This document shows, piece after piece, positions 9,369 to 63,332 of a DNA stretch of 64,000 nucleotides. The stretch's first letter is position 1. Every line of letters starts with the position of its first letter. The stretch lies in NCBI RefSeq assembly GCF_038003525.1, contig NZ_JBBOPI010000001.1, positions 611,001 to 675,000 on the forward strand. The letters run 5' to 3'. The stretch comes from Solibacillus sp. FSL H8-0538. GTDB lineage: Bacteria; Bacillota; Bacilli; Bacillales_A; Planococcaceae. The notes beneath the pieces are model-generated. The model searched no databases and was not told the origin of the DNA. It saw nothing but the letters and a program-made list of their open reading frames with translations. The position numbers were made by a program, and so were the translations under genes.

Positions 9369-12300
9369 ATGGCTAACCAACCAAAGAAATACAAAAAATT
9401 CGTAGCAACAGCTGCGACGGCTACATTAGTAGCATCAGCAATCGTACCAGTTGCTTCGGCAGCATCATTATCAGATATCTCAGGTACACATGAAGAAGCA
9501 ATCACTTCATTAGTGGAAGCTGGCGTAGTATCAGGATATGCGGATGGCACATTCAAACCTAATAAAGAATTAACTCGTTCTGACGTAGTTAAATTATTAG
9601 GTAAATTTTTAGTAACTAAAGGATTCGAAGTTCCAGCAGATGCTGTAACTAACCCACGTTTCAACGACTTAAATTCTAAGTCAAACAAAGAATTACTTGA
9701 GTATGCTGCAGTAGTTTACGATGCAGGTGTATTCTAAGGCTCTAACGGTAAGCTACTAGCAGGTGACAAAATCACTCGCGAAAACATGGCTGTCGTTTTA
9801 GTTCGTGCTTTCAACACAATCAATGATATCAACCTTGAAGCTTATGTAGCTGATCAAGACTTCTCAGGCGATGTAAAAGATCTTTTCGTAGCTAAAGCTG
9901 AAGCTCGTTCTGCTATCGAAGTATTAGACTTCTTCGATATCACAAACCCATCTGTAGCGAACTTCAATCCAAAAGGCTCAACTACTCGTGGCCAATTCGC
10001 TACATTCTTATACAAAACTATCAATACTGATTTCTCATCTGTAACAGGCGCTGTTGGTGCTGTAGCTTCTATTAAGGCTATTAACACTACAACGGTTGAA
10101 GTAACTTTCAAAGATGCTATCGAAGACATTAAAGCAGTTGACTTCGCTATCGAAGGTCTTGAAATTTCTAACGCAGTAGTTAAACAAACGGACGCTAAAA
10201 CTGCAGTATTAACTACAGCAGTACAAACTGGCGATAAAGTTTATACATTGACTGTTAATGGAAACAAAGCTGGTACATTCAAAGGTGTATCTGCTGTAAT
10301 TCCAACTAAAATTGATGTTGTTACTAAATCAATCCAAGGTGTTCTTGGTAAAGAAGTAACTGTATCTGCTAAAGTAACAGTTCCAGAAGGACAATCTGCT
10401 GCAGGTATACCTGTAACATTCAACGTTCCACAACAAGGCTCTTTAGCAAACGCGATCACTGCTGAAGCAATTACTAACGCTGACGGTGTAGCATCTTATA
10501 CTTACACTCGTTATACAAAAGTAACAGACGATGTTGTAGCATACGCTACTGGTGATCGTACGAAATACTCTGCTGGTAAAGTTTACTGGGCTGACAAAAT
10601 CCAATTAGCAGTTTCAGAGATTACTACAGGTAATGATCTGACTAATAACACTAAAAAATCATACAAAGTAACTGGTGCTAAAAACACAACTTACTTTGTA
10701 ACAGTTAAAGAAAATATCGATGTTACACCTGATAAAATTACAAAATTAAATGTTCAAAATGCTGGCTCAAGCCTATTTGTAATTCCTACTGAATTATCAA
10801 CAGGCGGAAATAATATAGTTGCAGAAGTTCGTACTGATGCAGATGGTGAAGCAACATTCACTGTATACGGAGAAAACTTAACAGCAACTCCAGTTGTATA
10901 TGATGCTAATACAGTGTCTGACAACTTAAATTCTGCAGGTACTCGCATTGATGATGAGTATTCTAAAACAGCATTACAAGCTGAAGCTCCAGCCGTTAAA
11001 TACTCAAAAATTGATGCATTAAAAGTATCTGTAGTAGCAGAAGGTACTGCAAACTCAGCAGAATATGTTGCAACTCCATTTGCTTATAATCAAAATTCAG
11101 TTGGTGGTCGTACTTATACAGTTACTGTAACTGATAAAGATGGAAAATTAGCACCAGAAGGTTCAACTGCTTATGTTACGTTCGAAAAAGATAACTTCTT
11201 TGGTTCTGTTTACTTCACTACAGCTAAAGAAAACTTCAGAACAGTAGTACAAGATGTTGCTTATGCAATTACAGTTGGTAAAGATGGTAAAGCAACATTC
11301 CGTGTAGCTGGTTCTGGTGCAACTTCATTCGCCAAACCAACGGTATTCTTAAATACTGCAGGTAATGAAATTCCTGCAAAATTAAATAAAGAAGACGTTC
11401 AACAAGTTGCTGAAGTAACTTACTTCAAATCTCCAGTTGTTAAAAATGCAGTGATTAAAGTTAAAGATGCTAATGGAAATGAAATTACATCAACAACTGC
11501 TGGTACAGAAGCATATGTAACTTACCAATCAGTAGACCAAAATGGTTTTGCTTATAGACCGACTACTGCTAACTACCAATTAGCATTTGATGTAACTTCT
11601 ACATTCGGAAACGCAATCGTAACTGATAATGTTTCTGGTAGTGTATTAAATCCATCACAAAACCTTGGTAATACAAAAACTTACCAAGTAGTATCTAATT
11701 CAACTGGTGAAGCGACTATTCGTGTAACTACAACTAGTGCAGATACAGTTACTGTAAATGTAACTGGAGCAAATGGAATTCTTCCAACTCAAGCTGCAAC
11801 TGTAAGCTTTACAAATTCAAATGTAATACCATCTATATTTACTGGTGATGCAAAAATTGATGCAGTTAAAGATGAAATTACATTCGCTAAAACAACTGGT
11901 GGATTCTACCAATCTGTAAGCTATGCTAATGCATCATTTGCAGAATATGGATTAACTATCGATAAAGATAAATTTGAAAGCTTAATTTCAGAGGATAATG
12001 ATGATGATAATCTTTATTCTGAAGTAACAGCTATTCGTGATGCAAATGGTAACTATAAATTCGATTATCGTGGTTCAGGCAATCCATTGCCTACTACACC
12101 AGCTCCAAGTGTAACTGGAGATGTTAAGTTTACAAATGCAACATTCAATGCTTCAGCTAGCCAAACAATTACTGTTACAGATGCTGACTTAAATACAAGT
12201 ACAGCATCTCAACAAACAACTACTGTAACTGTTGCAGATACTACTGGTAGAACAGTTTCTGTAACATTAACTGAAGTAGATAATGATGATTCAGTATTCA

Positions 12301-13049
12301 CAGGTACTATTTCACCAGCTCAACTTGCAACTTTAGCCGATGGAACGTTAACTGTAACTTATAACGATGCTAAAACAGCAGCTAATGTTGCTGGTGTTGA
12401 TACAGATACTGCAACGCTTAATACTACAGTTGCTACATTATCAAGTGCAACAACAGTTGCTACACCAGCAACTGCGATAATTAGTTCTCTTGGTCAAACA
12501 ATCACTGTAGGTTTAGAAGGTGCTGTAGCTACTTCTCATGCTGGTGCTTTCGGTAACGAACTTGACATCGTAATCGCAGATGGTACTGGAAATAGTGCTG
12601 CTACAACTATTCTTTTAGCTGGCAATGTTTTAACAGTAACTCGTGCTACAGACGCTGGAGGAGCTCAATTACCACTAGATCAATTAACACTTGCTTCACT
12701 AATTGATGGTCATGCTGGTTTCACTGCAACTCTAAGTGGTACAGGAACACCAACTGTTGCTAATGGCACTACTGACTTCACGGGCGGTAAAGATGTAGTT
12801 ACAGTTAACTTCTCTAAAGCAGTTACTGCATCTACTGTAAATCTTGCTAATGCAACTACGGACTTTGCTTTAAGTGGTCCAACTACATTTGCTGGTACTA
12901 CAGTACTAGGCGCTGACAATAAATCTGCAGTAATCACTATTACTACTGCTACTGCTCTTGTAAAAGGTAAAAACATTAATGTTATTGCAACTGAAATTGA
13001 AGATGAAAATGGTACTGATCTTTCTGCAGCACCTACTGCTATCCAATAA
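9369..13049 (+). pseudogene. S-layer protein gene interrupted by an in-frame TAA
   Basis: A frame of 1227 codons encoding an S-layer precursor (signal peptide through ASA near residue 31, three SLH domains to ~220, then repeated Ig-like modules). It is broken only by TAA at 9735-9737, codon 123. The paralogues at 37097 and 40130 read GVFNGSNG at this point; here it reads GVF-stop-GSNG, so the stop replaces a conserved Asn inside SLH domain 2. No frame change follows, and the remaining 1104 codons stay open. AAC/AAT to TAA needs two base changes. No ribosome site precedes the next ATG (9786), so as read only a 122-residue fragment would be made. Promoter, ribosome site and terminator are intact. 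It may be a silent S-layer copy, a recent inactivation or a sequencing error. Confidence 0.85.
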
Positions 13050-13153
13050 TTTAAGTTTTGATACATTATATTTTAAAACAACTCTAGTTAATGCTAGATG
13101 TTAGATTACGCGATTCAGATTATATAGTTTAGTAAAGATGAATTGTGAAAGTC

Positions 13154-13195
13154 GAAAAGGCTCTGTAGAGAGAAAATCTCTACAGGGCTTTTTTG
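13154..13195 (+). terminator. Terminator after the interrupted S-layer gene
   Basis: GGCTCTGTAGAGA pairs with TCTCTACAGGGC around a short A-rich loop, followed by six T residues. Confidence 0.88.
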
Positions 13196-13221
13196 TATGT
13201 TTTGAAAACCCCCTGCTATGC

Positions 13222-13465
13222 GAGGGCACTGAAAAAGTGGATTTCTACTGAAAACTCCACTAAATATAGGCTAAATAGTGATAGGGCATTGGTGCCGCGG
13301 TACACGCTTTTTTGCGGGCGTTGGCGACCCTCCTCGAGGCTACGCTCCTGTAGGATCTCACCTGTACTACGTCCCTTGCAGAAGTCTCGCATCGCCGTGC
13401 CTATGCTTTTTGGATAAAATATCGAAGAAGTATAAAAATACTGATTAAGGGTTTTTCAGTGCTCT
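13222..13465. mobile_element. 244-bp MITE with IS1182-type ends, flanked by a 9-10 bp target duplication
   Basis: The left end GAGGGCACTGAAAAAGT is inverted at the right end (AGAGCACTGAAAAACC when complemented). CTGCTATGC flanks it directly at 13213-13221 and 13466-13474; counting one more G gives 10 bp. Removing the element restores a perfect hairpin, AACCCCCTGC-TAT-GCGGGGGGTT, with the duplicated bases at its apex. The element has a GC-rich core and no gene. The same ends bound the IS1182-type remnant at 62284-63293, which probably identifies the transposase that moved it. Confidence 0.8.
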
Positions 13466-13514
13466 CTGCTATGCGGGGGGTTCCAAAAAGCTTTTAGCTA
13501 TGGACAAAAAAAAA

Positions 13515-13576: not shown

Positions 13577-14050
13577 ATGGATAATAAAAGTTTAGCACAT
13601 ACAACATGGAATTGTAAGTATCACATCGTCTTCGCACCAAAGTACAGAAGACAAATTATTTATGGTCAAATAAAAGCGGACATAGGTCGTATACTACGCC
13701 AACTATGTGAAAGAAAAGGTGTAAAAATTATTGAAGCAACGGCATGTCCAGATCATATTCATATGTTAGTAAGTATCCCACCGAAGTTAAGCGTATCGGC
13801 ATTTGTAGGTTATTTAAAAGGGAAAAGTAGTCTCATGATATTCGATCGACATGCGAATTTGAAATATCGATATGGAAATCGTAAATTTTGGTGTCGAGGA
13901 TATTATGTAGACACTGTAGGACGAAACCGAAAAGTAATTCAAGAGTACATCAAAAACCAATTACAAGAAGATATCCTGGAAGATCAAATGACAATGAAAG
14001 AATTCATTGACCCATTCACAGGAGAAGAAATCAAGAGAAAGAAAAGATAA
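13577..14050 (+). CDS. tnpA: IS200/IS605-family TnpA transposase
   Basis: A 157-residue Y1 HUH transposase that cuts and rejoins single-stranded DNA at hairpin ends. The HUH motif is H60-I-H62 (CPDHIHM) and the catalytic tyrosine is most likely Y124 in IQEYIKNQ, matching IS608 TnpA spacing. Length is normal for the family and the gene looks intact, so the element may still be mobile. The ribosome site AAAGGAG lies within a stem-loop, suggesting translational repression. Confidence 0.92.
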   Translation: MDNKSLAHTTWNCKYHIVFAPKYRRQIIYGQIKADIGRILRQLCERKGVKIIEATACPDHIHMLVSIPPKLSVSAFVGYLKGKSSLMIFDRHANLKYRYGNRKFWCRGYYVDTVGRNRKVIQEYIKNQLQEDILEDQMTMKEFIDPFTGEEIKRKKR

Positions 14051-14417: not shown

Positions 14418-15607
14418 TTATGCTACATTTTTATAGGTATGATAAAGACCGTTTAACACGATGGTTGCTTCTAGTTTTGTTTCCGCTGCTGATGTCGGAA
14501 GATAGATTGGAGAAGCAATAGGTGTTTTTCCTTCAATTCCTTGATGTGTTCGATTCGTATTGTAGTAGTCGTTGATGTATTCGTGAAGTAGTTTATGTAA
14601 GTGTAATTGGTTAAGTGGGATGATGTGGTTTACTAGCTCACGCTTAAACGTACCAATTACTCTTTCTGCATAAGGATTCTGCCACGGAGAGCGATAAGAC
14701 GTTCTCTTAGAGGTAATCCCTGATGATAGTAAAAAACGTTGGAATGCTTTAGAACGGAAAATAGGATCATAATCATGAATAAGGTATTTAGGTACTTCAC
14801 CAAAGGGCGTTGCATTTCTGAACTGTTGTATGGTCCATTGTGCAGTAGGATTAGATGTGACGCCAAAAGAAATAATCTTTCGGTTTTGATGATCAATAAT
14901 TACTAATACATAAAGTACATTGAAAGTTAATGTAGGTATCGTAAAGAAATCAGTTGCCCAACTAACAGACTGATGGTTATTCAGGAAAGTCTGCCATGTT
15001 TGAATTCGTTTTTCAGTAGGTGGTTTTCTTGTACTGGGTATATATTTAGCAATTGTATTTGGTGCAGGTGGTTTTTCAATTCCTAATAGAAGTAGTTTTT
15101 CATTGATTTTTTCTGGTGATAGTAAAGGGTTTTCATGATGTACTTGCTTTATTAGCTTGATCGTATCTTGAGATATTTTCGGTCGACCTGTTTTTCTTGA
15201 TTTACGTTTCCAGTATAATTTGAAAGCTGTTTGATGCCATTTAATGACGGTTTCTGGTTTCACAACAATTAAGTAATCCTCCAGTTTTCTAAATACTTGG
15301 AAAGGAATACCCAAAGCTTTCGAAAGGCTGGTGTCGGTCTTGGCTTCGGGAGTTTTTGTTTTTCGTATCGTTGGACATATAGTGCTAGCTGACTTCTGAG
15401 AGCTATATTTTCCATTTTAATAGCATGCGACGTTTTAAAGTAGAGTTGTAGAAATTGAAAAAGATAGTGAAACCATTCTTTGGAGCATACATATAAAGAA
15501 CGAATAGACGCTATTGTTAATCCTCCTAGTAGTTTATATACTTTTATTAATAAATTTATACAAGTTTTGTTTGGAGTTCCAGATAAAATGATGTAATGCT
15601 TTCTCAT
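14418..15607 (-). pseudogene. Integrase-core (rve) transposase, frameshifted
   Basis: Two overlapping frames together make one transposase of about 395 residues. The upstream frame (15607-15269) ends …KYLENWRIT-stop; the downstream frame (from 15314) continues …DYLIVVKPETVIKWH. Inserting one G in the GGAGGATTAC stretch near 15275-15290 would join them, so a single-base deletion is likely. The catalytic triad survives in the downstream part: D in WATDFFT, D in IHDYDPIF and E in NPYAERVIG. Homologues I know are single reading frames, so decay is likelier than programmed frameshifting. Just upstream of its start lies the tail of another gene (15610-15788), which the insertion may have cut. Confidence 0.75.
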
Positions 15608-55552: not shown

Positions 55553-56013
55553 ATTTGGTTTAGCAAAGCATAATCTTTTGGCACAACCATATCGTAAATC
55601 GTCATAAACGGGCTTAATTTTAGTGTTTCCTGATTTTAAATAATTTAGAAAAACTGTATTAAAATATATTATTTTAGAATATAAAAAAATCATCCCTTCT
55701 AGATGAGAGAATGACGCATTCATTATTAACAGGTACAAGTTGATTGGAGTGGAGGCGACGACTTCTAGGGGATTAGCGAGCAGCTTGAGACCCTGGAATG
55801 AGGCCAACACGATGTTAGTCACAAAGGCGTTGCCACAGGACGTGGCGTACTTAGCCTTTGTTCCTTTGTTACCCGAAAGCGGCTCAAGGCTCGCCCCCAG
55901 AAAAGCGTTCGCCGCAACGGAAATCAACGACATCGAAGAAAAAAGCCAGTTCTTAAACGATGTCTCGTTCAAGAACTGGCTAAATTACTTTATAGACTTT
56001 TTCATTGCCCACC
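55553..56013 (-). mobile_element. Truncated IS1182-type left end with leader terminator
   Basis: On the minus strand it starts with GGGCAATGAAAAAGTCTATA at about 56012, a diverged form of the end at 62284. A hairpin (55944-55981: AGCCAGTTCTTGAAC pairing with its complement) followed by a T-run comes next, then a GC-rich segment, then a transposase start at 55605 (MTIYDMVVPKDYALLNQMK) that soon breaks. The layout matches 62284-62640. It abuts the stop codon of the glucosaminidase gene, so its internal hairpin now serves as that gene's likely terminator. Compared with the 62 kb copy it carries a ~65-bp insertion in the GC-rich part. Confidence 0.75.
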
Positions 56014-62242: not shown

Positions 62243-62283
62243 TAAAACCTTTGCGGAAGTTTGCGAACGAAACATGCAACTTC
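62243..62283 (+). terminator. Left half of a terminator split by an insertion
   Basis: AAAACCTTTGCGGAAGTTTGC (62244-62264) pairs with GCAACTTCCGCAGAGGTTTT, whose remaining part now lies at 63295-63316, followed by its T-run. The IS1182-type element sits in the 3' arm and duplicates TGCAACTTC (62275-62283 and 63294-63302). The left piece alone can still form a smaller hairpin (GAAGTTTGC…GCAACTTC) without a T-run. Confidence 0.75.
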
Positions 62284-62626
62284 GAGGGCACTGAAGAAGT
62301 CTATAAAGTAGTTTAGCCAGTTCTTGAACGATGTCTTGTTCAAGAACTGGCTTTTTTCTTCGATGTCGTTGATTTCCGTTGCGGCGAACGCTTTTCTGGG
62401 GGCGAGCCTTGAGCCGCTTCCCTCGCTGCGCTCAGTCCAGGGTCTCAAGCTGCTCGCTAATCCCCTAGAAGTCGTCGCCTCCACTCCAATCAACTTGTAT
62501 TTGTTAGAAATGAATGCGTCATTCTCTCATCTAAAAAGAATGCTTCATTGTATTCTTAAAGGAACATATTAAAGGTAGTATTTCTAAATTTTTCCAATCC
62601 AATAAACACTCAACTTTAGCCTGTTT

Positions 62627-62966
62627 ATGGCGTTTTACGATGTTAATGTGCCAAAAGATAACATGCTTTGCCAAATCAATGAACTTGATGATTTTTCATT
62701 CATTTTAGAAGAGTTAAAAATAAAATATTGTTTAGACAACGGGTGGAACGCGATACATGATGTATCAGACGTCTACTTAGTGGAACCCTCAAAATACTGA
62801 ATAATTTAAGCAATTACCCGCAAATTACTACAAAGTAGAAAAGAAGAATAGTGAATTGAAAAAGGAAACGGCATCGGGTCTATTGGGCATAGAAATTCAA
62901 AGTGCCACAACGATATTTGCTGTCAAACTGAAACAAATATTAAAGCTACTGAATGAAAAAGAGTAA
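62627..62966 (+). pseudogene. IS1182-family transposase, internally deleted
   Basis: The N-terminus MAFYDVNVPKDNMLCQINEL…LKIKYCLDNGW matches what I know of IS1182 transposases. After a deletion it reads HDVSDVYLVEPSKY and stops at 62800. A second open piece (…VEKKNSELKKETASG… to …LKLLNEKE, ending 62966) looks like the protein's C-terminus. More than half the catalytic domain is gone, so it cannot move itself. Confidence 0.8.
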
Positions 62967-63114
62967 GGAATAGAGAAGGAAATAATTCATTTTCTGTTCA
63001 AAATTGAACAAGAAGTGAATTATTTTTAACTGAAAAAGATTCGTTATTATTAGGGTCTTTACCAAAACATGTCCTTTACTTTAAAAGAAAGTGTACTACT
63101 TTATAGGCACATGG

Positions 63115-63230
63115 AACGGAAGGCGGCGACTCCTGCGGGAAAAGCGTGAGCCTTGAGACCCCGCACGAAGCGAAGCGGAGGAGGAGGCTCAAGCCACGCC
63201 CGCGGAAAGCGACCGCCTGGAGTGGAATGT
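63115..63230. repeat. GC-rich Bacillaceae-type repeat block
   Basis: GGCGGCGACTCCTGCGGGAA … ACCCCGC … GAGGAGG … CGCCCGCGGAAAGCGACCGCC has strong internal dyad symmetry and is much richer in GC than its surroundings. An inverted relative lies at 62380-62500. Similar blocks recur in many Bacillaceae genomes (from memory). Confidence 0.6.
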
Positions 63231-63332
63231 GCTGTCAAGTTCAGATTTTGGTGTAGGGCCCATTATTAAAATATAAGTTTTTCAGTGCCCTTTGCAACTT
63301 CCGCAGAGGTTTTTTCGTTTTAGAGACATTAT

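What the first reader, a model, noticed from the sequence alone, without database searches (positions are those of the whole stretch)
13213..13474. MITE inserted exactly in the loop of a GC-rich hairpin
The 244-bp element has IS1182-type ends (GAGGGCACTGAAAAAGT) and duplicates CTGCTATGC(G). Deleting it restores a near-perfect hairpin, AACCCCCTGC-TAT-GCGGGGGGTT, with the duplicated bases at its apex. The related 1.0-kb element at 62284 also lies within a terminator hairpin. Two of two flank-resolved copies in 64 kb landing in terminator-type hairpins suggests target choice by structure, which would limit damage to genes. I know of no description of this for IS1182-type ends.
Basis: partly seen in the sequence, partly recalled or inferred. 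Interest (0 to 1): 0.72.

Follow-up and report, generated by a model that had tools for sequence, protein, structure and literature searches.

The report
Mobile DNA inserting into hairpin tips
A small mobile DNA element sits exactly at the tip of a DNA hairpin, and most of its relatives examined in other bacteria do the same, apparently choosing where to insert largely by the symmetry or folded shape of the target.

Summary
Confirmed and general. The 245-bp element (13222-13466) is a MITE of an IS1182-family insertion sequence (1872 bp, six identical copies in this genome). An 8-bp duplication, TGCTATGC, marks the apex of AACCCCCTGCTATGCGGGGGGTT. The 1009-bp relic (62284-63292) has a 9-bp duplication in the 3' arm of a terminator hairpin, not at its tip.

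Among 66 non-redundant insertions of relatives, 41 have a strong dyad within 1 bp of the duplication's centre (local control 1.7%); pairing is site-specific, and 8/9-bp length tracks hairpin parity. IS256-family control: 0 of 9. In this genome the signal is weaker (5 of 23, the window MITE included). A distant IS1182 branch duplicates the entire hairpin (25 of 31 copies resolved, all 25 so; 18-44 bp).

Hairpin targeting as such is published for IS1272, an IS1182-family element that removes the hairpin and makes no duplication. Wan et al. (2017) drew loop- and whole-hairpin-duplicating pathways as hypotheses; both appear real and clade-specific. An extruded hairpin as substrate is inferred, not shown.

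The parts
13222..13466 (+). MITE of the IS1182-family element, 245 bp, no transposase gene
   Evidence: no ORF of 80 aa or more inside it
13222..13238 (+). left terminal inverted repeat GAGGGCACTGAAAAAGT
13450..13466 (-). right terminal inverted repeat GAGAGCACTGAAAAACC
13214..13221 (.). left copy of target duplication TGCTATGC
13467..13474 (.). right copy of target duplication TGCTATGC
13207..13213 (.). left arm of the target hairpin (AACCCCC) outside the duplication
13475..13482 (.). right arm of the target hairpin (GGGGGGTT) outside the duplication
13153..13195 (+). separate intrinsic-terminator-like hairpin just upstream of the target hairpin
62284..63292 (+). 1009-bp relative with internal deletion; fragments 71-79% identical to the 1872-bp IS; no intact transposase gene
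62275..62283 (.). left copy of target duplication TGCAACTTC, in the 3' arm of the target hairpin next to its loop
63293..63301 (.). right copy of target duplication TGCAACTTC
62245..62264 (.). 5' arm of the terminator-type target hairpin
63302..63315 (.). rest of the 3' arm and T-run of that terminator-type hairpin

Best explanation
The element is a non-autonomous derivative of an IS1182-family insertion sequence whose transposase (487 aa, same genome) acts on it in trans. This transposase prefers inverted repeats able to form a hairpin, usually intrinsic terminators. It joins the two element ends to the two strands about 4 nt (even palindromes) or 4.5 nt (odd palindromes) either side of the dyad axis; gap repair then duplicates the central 8 or 9 bp and leaves one hairpin arm on each side of the element. 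SHOWN here: family membership; the 8-9 bp duplication; its centring on dyad axes in most relatives; site-specific pairing of the arms; duplication length following dyad parity; natural empty sites of one relative's insertion carrying the hairpin. INFERRED: mobilisation in trans; that the substrate is an extruded hairpin or cruciform rather than symmetric duplex DNA; that insertion at gene ends, together with a terminator-like hairpin carried just inside the IS, limits the cost to the host.
For: Transposase P0001 = NF033551 transpos_IS1182, 358 bits, cut-off 270; DUF772 and DDE domains. Six identical 1872-bp copies plus one at 73%. Relatives: of 116 loci, 77 have a perfect duplication of at least 6 bp, 66 after removing redundancy; dyad score >=16 within 1 bp of the duplication's centre in 41 of 66 against 278 of 16445 control positions; of 52 sites with a dyad of >=15 within 12 bp, 27 are centred exactly. 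Pairing of the 8 positions on either side of the duplication: summed fraction 4.44 against 2.45 (sd 0.16, max of 1000 = 3.05) when right arms are shuffled among sites; own genome 3.17 against 2.43 (sd 0.27, max 3.48). Duplication length against dyad parity, relatives and own sites pooled: 8/even 23, 8/odd 9, 9/odd 12, 9/even 4, Fisher p = 0.0046. Natural empty sites of one insertion (L205): in 10 of 11 related genomes one alignment runs across the site, and all 10 have a hairpin there (-8.1 to -21.4 kcal/mol). IS256-family control in the same host family, 7- or 8-bp duplications: 0 of 9. Plasmid copies of the clade in Priestia (67% identity), Peptoclostridium (66%) and Enterococcus raffinosus (52.5%): apex duplication; a fourth, Metabacillus (63%), has an 8-bp duplication but only a weak hairpin.
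Against: In this genome only 5 of 23 non-redundant sites are apex-centred on a strong hairpin, 4 of 22 without the window MITE that prompted the study. Of the six identical, presumably youngest copies, four share one repeat where the duplication lies in a hairpin arm (d = 11), one lies off-centre in a weak hairpin and one has no hairpin. 25 of 66 relatives' sites lack a strong centred dyad; some have little or none nearby (L138, L229). 14 of 40 own-genome end pairs and 39 of 116 relatives' loci had no usable ends or duplication and were dropped; two of those (L221, L224) have good ends and no duplication. There is primary-sequence bias: C-rich left arm, G-rich right arm, A/T-rich duplication, so recognition is not purely structural. 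Symmetric transposition complexes can prefer symmetric duplex targets without any extruded structure.
Confidence: 0.8

Rival explanations
1. Duplex recognition: the transposase reads dyad-symmetric double-stranded DNA (two-fold symmetric strand-transfer complex) and no hairpin is ever extruded.
For: Symmetric base bias around the site (C-rich left, G-rich right). Some DDE transposases are known to prefer symmetric targets (recalled: IS30, Tn10).
Against: Partner shuffling destroys most of the pairing, so a shared symmetric sequence does not account for it; duplication length shifts between 8 and 9 with dyad parity; the distant IS1182 branch duplicates 18-44 bp centred on the dyad in 25 of 25 resolved copies, which a fixed stagger in duplex DNA does not explain.
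Confidence: 0.25
2. Survival bias: insertions are random, and only those between genes, where terminators lie, are kept.
For: Most strong hairpins are terminator-like (38 of 44; background of the T/A-run rule 844 of 3208).
Against: Selection would hardly centre insertions to the base: 27 of 52 sites with a strong nearby dyad are centred exactly. IS256-family elements in the same host family do not show it (0 of 9).
Confidence: 0.05
3. IS1272-type stem-loop replacement: the element replaces the hairpin and what looks like flanking arms is coincidence.
For: Same IS family; IS1272 targets inverted repeats.
Against: Both hairpin arms are retained and an 8-9 bp duplication is present; natural empty sites of one relative's insertion carry the hairpin.
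Confidence: 0.02
4. The window case is a coincidence: a GC-rich hairpin that happened to be hit, with no general preference.
For: In this genome about half of the sites have no strong fold (12 of 23 with MFE at or below -8).
Against: The own-genome signal still exceeds control (5 of 23 against 1.6%; Mann-Whitney p 0.0017) and relatives show it clearly.
Confidence: 0.03

Closest known systems
IS1272 / TnSha1 (IS1182 family, staphylococci), Wan et al. 2017 PMC5678879 and Furi et al. 2016 PMC4923244
   Same: Same IS family; targets are inverted repeats or hairpins of no fixed sequence, several confirmed as terminators (Furi). Wan also reports some older copies at non-IR targets, as here.
   Different: IS1272 and TnSha1 remove all or part of the hairpin and make no target duplication; here both arms stay and 8-9 bp at the apex are duplicated. 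Wan et al. drew this outcome (pathway c, loop duplication) and whole stem-loop duplication (pathway b) as possibilities, not as observations.
ISBspe1-type IS1182 elements (L269 and relatives among L271-L300)
   Same: IS1182-family transposase (L269: NF033551, 505 bits); targets are hairpins.
   Different: 22% transposase identity to this element; ends mostly of the form TCAGACTGTAGACAAA; the duplication is the whole hairpin, 18-44 bp, in 25 of 25 resolved copies of 31 examined.
MITEPye1 and ISPse1 (IS1182 family, Paracoccus), PMC11578231, PMC3281130
   Same: IS1182-type ends; MITEPye1 is a MITE located preferentially between genes.
   Different: 4-bp duplications; no hairpin target in the passages I read.

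Membership tests
IS1182 family | IS1182-type DDE transposase | tested here: met
   NF033551, 358.3 bits against cut-off 270, for the full-length copy in the same genome
IS1182 family | terminal inverted repeats shared by IS and MITE | tested here: met
   17-bp ends; 76 genome matches with up to 2 mismatches
IS1182 family | direct repeats within the 2-60 bp that PMC7335449 quotes from ISFinder | tested here: met
   8-9 bp at most sites; quotation read as a passage
MITE | short, no transposase gene, ends of a resident IS, target duplication | tested here: met
   245 bp; no ORF of 80 aa or more inside; ends shared with the 1872-bp IS; 8-bp duplication
MITE | mobilised in trans by the resident transposase | not testable with these tools
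   needs a transposition assay
IS1272-type stem-loop replacement | target is an inverted repeat | tested here: met
   window copy; 41 of 66 relatives and 5 of 23 own sites
IS1272-type stem-loop replacement | stem-loop removed and no target duplication | tested here: not met
   arms retained, 8-9 bp duplicated

The most novel reading that the evidence does not exclude
IS1182-family transposases are structure-reading DDE enzymes: they act on extruded target hairpins, each clade cuts the hairpin at its own place, and the target's fold, not the enzyme alone, sets the length of the target duplication. One clade cuts about 4 nt from the apex (apex duplicated), another near the stem base (whole hairpin duplicated, 18-44 bp), and IS1272 removes the hairpin. 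This would explain why ISFinder records direct repeats of 2-60 bp for the family, called an extreme case in PMC7335449.
Probability: 0.6. Interest if true: 0.75.

Novelty: new variant of a known kind. Interest (0 to 1): 0.6.

Why it matters
A cut-and-join transposase normally sets its own target duplication length. Here the target's fold seems to set it, in two branches of one family with different cut positions. That turns the three pathways that Wan et al. sketched for a stem-loop target into a comparison testable with natural enzymes, suggests a way to aim a transposon at terminators, and may offer a genomic readout of which hairpins are accessible in cells. It also offers a reason for the widely varying direct-repeat lengths listed for the IS1182 family.

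Tried and rejected
Considered and rejected: random insertion with survival bias; coincidence; IS1272-type replacement (see rivals). Placing the 62284 copy at the apex was rejected: it is in the 3' arm. My first dyad test on the own-genome set alone gave 7 of 24 sites at or below the 5% level, too weak to settle the matter, so relatives were collected.

Led nowhere: partner ends for most one-ended copies; an orthologous empty site for the L210 insertion (partial matches only, not followed up); an empty site for the window copies themselves (no other genome of the genus is held); Siguier et al. 2014 and 2015 (not held), so what those reviews say about palindromic targets is known to me only through Wan and Furi, who cite Siguier. 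Ten paper searches: I opened passages of seven listed papers (and sections of one of them, Wan) and saw no report of apex or whole-hairpin duplication; most listed papers were not opened, and one search listed only 30 of 50. IS1272's own transposase was not found or aligned, so its place relative to the two clades is untested. Four more distant IS1182 plasmid copies were looked at: L269 duplicates a hairpin; L266 has a 5-bp duplication without an obvious centred hairpin; for L267 and L270 my end-finder gave no duplication. So the family is not uniform.

In the IS256 control 20 of 30 loci had no resolvable duplication and 1 was redundant; two of the nine used (L304, L307) have doubtful ends. 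In the second clade 6 of 31 loci had no duplication of 7 bp or more (L273, L278, L297, L299 with no convincing ends; L272 and L289 with ends but none or 4 bp), and the exact lengths depend on where the ends are set (L269 14 or 18 bp, L286 38 or 44 bp).

Full report
WHAT IS THERE. At 13222-13466 lies a 245-bp element with ends GAGGGCACTGAAAAAGT and GAGAGCACTGAAAAACC. It is flanked by TGCTATGC on both sides. Joining the flanks gives AACCCCCTGCTATGCGGGGGGTT, which folds as DNA with z -4.23 and no shuffle of 200 as good. The second copy, 62284-63292 (1009 bp), has a 9-bp duplication TGCAACTTC inside the 3' arm of a long terminator-type hairpin (z -5.90), next to the loop but not at the tip. The element at 13222 lies downstream of a large ORF, 9786-13049, and just beyond another terminator-like hairpin at 13153-13195.

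FAMILY. The genome holds 76 matches to the end sequence with up to 2 mismatches, against 1 for the reversed pattern, and 28 stretches similar to the MITE, itself included. Six copies of an 1872-bp element are identical and a seventh is 73% alike. Its 487-aa transposase matches NCBIfam NF033551 (IS1182 family) with 358 bits, cut-off 270. The window MITE has no ORF of 80 aa or more, and the 1009-bp copy no intact transposase gene. Both look like non-autonomous derivatives (inference from shared ends).

OWN GENOME. I took stretches around the copies and listed ends and flanks. Of 40 end pairs, 26 had an acceptable duplication; 14 did not and were dropped. Single ends without a partner were also left out. 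Four copies share one target repeat, so 23 sites remain. A dyad scoring 16 or more lies within 1 bp of the duplication's centre at 5 of 23 (4 of 22 without the window MITE), against 62 of 3972 control positions in the same flanks. A 50-nt window at the site folds with -8 kcal/mol or better at 12 of 23, against 282 of 1426 control windows (Mann-Whitney p 0.0017). So the preference is real here but far from a rule. The six identical copies are not good examples: four sit in a hairpin arm of one repeat, one in a weak off-centre hairpin, one in none.

RELATIVES. Of 116 loci examined, 33 had no pair of ends, 6 had ends but no perfect duplication of 6 bp or more, and 77 had one; 72 remained after the first and 66 after the second removal of redundant sites. 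Duplication lengths of the 72: 8 bp 39, 9 bp 29, 10 bp 2, 7 bp 1, 6 bp 1. Ends and duplications were chosen without looking at hairpins. At 41 of 66 sites a dyad scoring 16 or more is centred within 1 bp of the duplication's centre, against 278 of 16445 control positions (1.7%). Of 52 sites with a dyad of 15 or more within 12 bp, 27 are centred exactly. A clear case (L161) reads gaacctacgaAGATCTCTtcgtaggttc, capitals duplicated. By folding energy, 57 of 66 sites reach -8 kcal/mol against 1691 of 5923 control windows.

STRUCTURE OR SEQUENCE? If the enzyme read one fixed symmetric sequence, exchanging right arms among sites would leave the pairing intact. It does not: the summed paired fraction of the 8 positions outside the duplication falls from 4.44 to 2.45 (sd 0.16; max of 1000 shuffles 3.05). 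There is still base bias: C-rich left and G-rich right arms with an A/T-rich centre. The duplication length follows the hairpin: over relatives and own sites pooled, even palindromes have 8 bp in 23 cases and 9 bp in 4, odd ones 9 bp in 12 and 8 bp in 9 (Fisher p 0.0046). Both strands thus seem to be cut at about the same distance from the tip. Of 44 strong hairpins (within 2.5 bp), 38 have a T- or A-run, against 844 of 3208 random flank positions under the same kind of rule; 6 do not, two of these narrowly (L199, L208).

CONTROLS. For one relative's insertion (L205), 11 related genomes were compared: in 10 one alignment runs across the site, and all 10 have a hairpin there, -8.1 to -21.4 kcal/mol; in the eleventh (L257) the alignment breaks near the site. 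IS256-family elements of the same host family, with 7- or 8-bp duplications, show a strong centred dyad at 0 of 9 sites (Fisher p 0.0004 against 41 of 66); only 10 of 30 loci could be resolved, one was redundant, and two of the nine have doubtful ends.

A SECOND MODE. Plasmid copies of the same clade in Priestia (67% identity), Peptoclostridium (66%) and Enterococcus raffinosus (52.5%) also duplicate the apex; a Metabacillus copy has an 8-bp duplication in a weak hairpin. A distant IS1182 element, ISBspe1-type in Alkalihalophilus (22% identity; NF033551 505 bits), duplicates a hairpin. Searching 200 genomes with its transposase and resolving ends gave 25 copies with a duplication of 7 bp or more out of 31 loci. 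In all 25 the duplication is itself a hairpin, 18-44 bp, centred on its dyad, with 25 distinct sequences and at most 2 of 300 shuffles as self-complementary. Exact lengths depend on where the ends are set (L269 14 or 18, L286 38 or 44). Other distant members differ: L266 has a 5-bp duplication, and none was found for L267 and L270.

WHAT IS KNOWN. Wan et al. 2017 (PMC5678879; abstract, passages, section 22 and part 1 of the discussion read) show that newly inserted IS1272 copies replace inverted repeats and make no duplication, while older copies were at IR or non-IR targets; their Figure 13 legend draws loop duplication and whole stem-loop duplication as alternative pathways. Furi et al. 2016 (PMC4923244; passages) show hairpin targeting with partial deletion for TnSha1 and IS1272, hairpins A-E being confirmed as terminators by RNA-seq. 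Both cite Siguier et al. for palindromic targets of some IS1182 members; the two Siguier reviews I tried are not held. PMC7335449 (passages) quotes ISFinder: direct repeats of 2-60 bp in IS1182, an extreme case. PMC9208149 (passages) names IS1182 among ten families over-represented between convergent genes. Ten searches and the passages I opened showed no report of apex or whole-hairpin duplication; most listed papers were not opened.

MECHANISM. The simplest reading is that the transposase docks on a hairpin extruded on each strand and joins each element end at a fixed distance from the tip. Ordinary gap repair then duplicates the apex. The ISBspe1 branch would do the same near the stem base, which duplicates the whole hairpin. 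Extrusion is inferred; a symmetric complex on duplex DNA remains possible, though it does not easily give 18-44 bp duplications that track the palindrome. The 1872-bp IS carries a terminator-like hairpin just inside its left end (L058 924-966), which could replace the terminator it splits; that is inference.

VERDICT. New variant of a known kind, interest 0.6.

Noticed in passing
window 13577-14050, + strand: An IS200/IS605-type transposase gene (PF01797, 140.7 bits; NF033573, 159.2 bits) starts about 95 bp downstream of the right hairpin arm, so two unrelated mobile elements lie at one gene end.
   Followed up: partly
window 14418-15314 and 15269-15607, - strand: Two overlapping ORFs; the first has rve integrase-core domains, suggesting a further insertion sequence next to the IS200-type one.
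   Followed up: no
L038 2711-4582, L047 888-2759, L058 872-2743, L060 864-2735: Four of the six identical 1872-bp copies sit at the same position of one interspersed repeat (duplication GGCGAAAG); in relative G138, copies L230-L233 and L235 likewise share one repeat with 10-bp duplications.
   Followed up: partly
L074 (own genome, C1:2673400-2677400): Several ends of the family close together, and the sequence flanking one left end recurs about 1.1 kb further on, suggesting nested insertions or a rearrangement between copies.
   Followed up: no
window 55996-56012, - strand: A further single end of the family (2 mismatches) whose partner end was not found.
   Followed up: partly
L058 924-966; window about 62313-62352: A 20-pair terminator-like hairpin lies just inside the left end of the IS, and the 1009-bp window copy has an inverted repeat followed by T's near its left end (read by eye); they may stop transcription entering the element.
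   Followed up: partly
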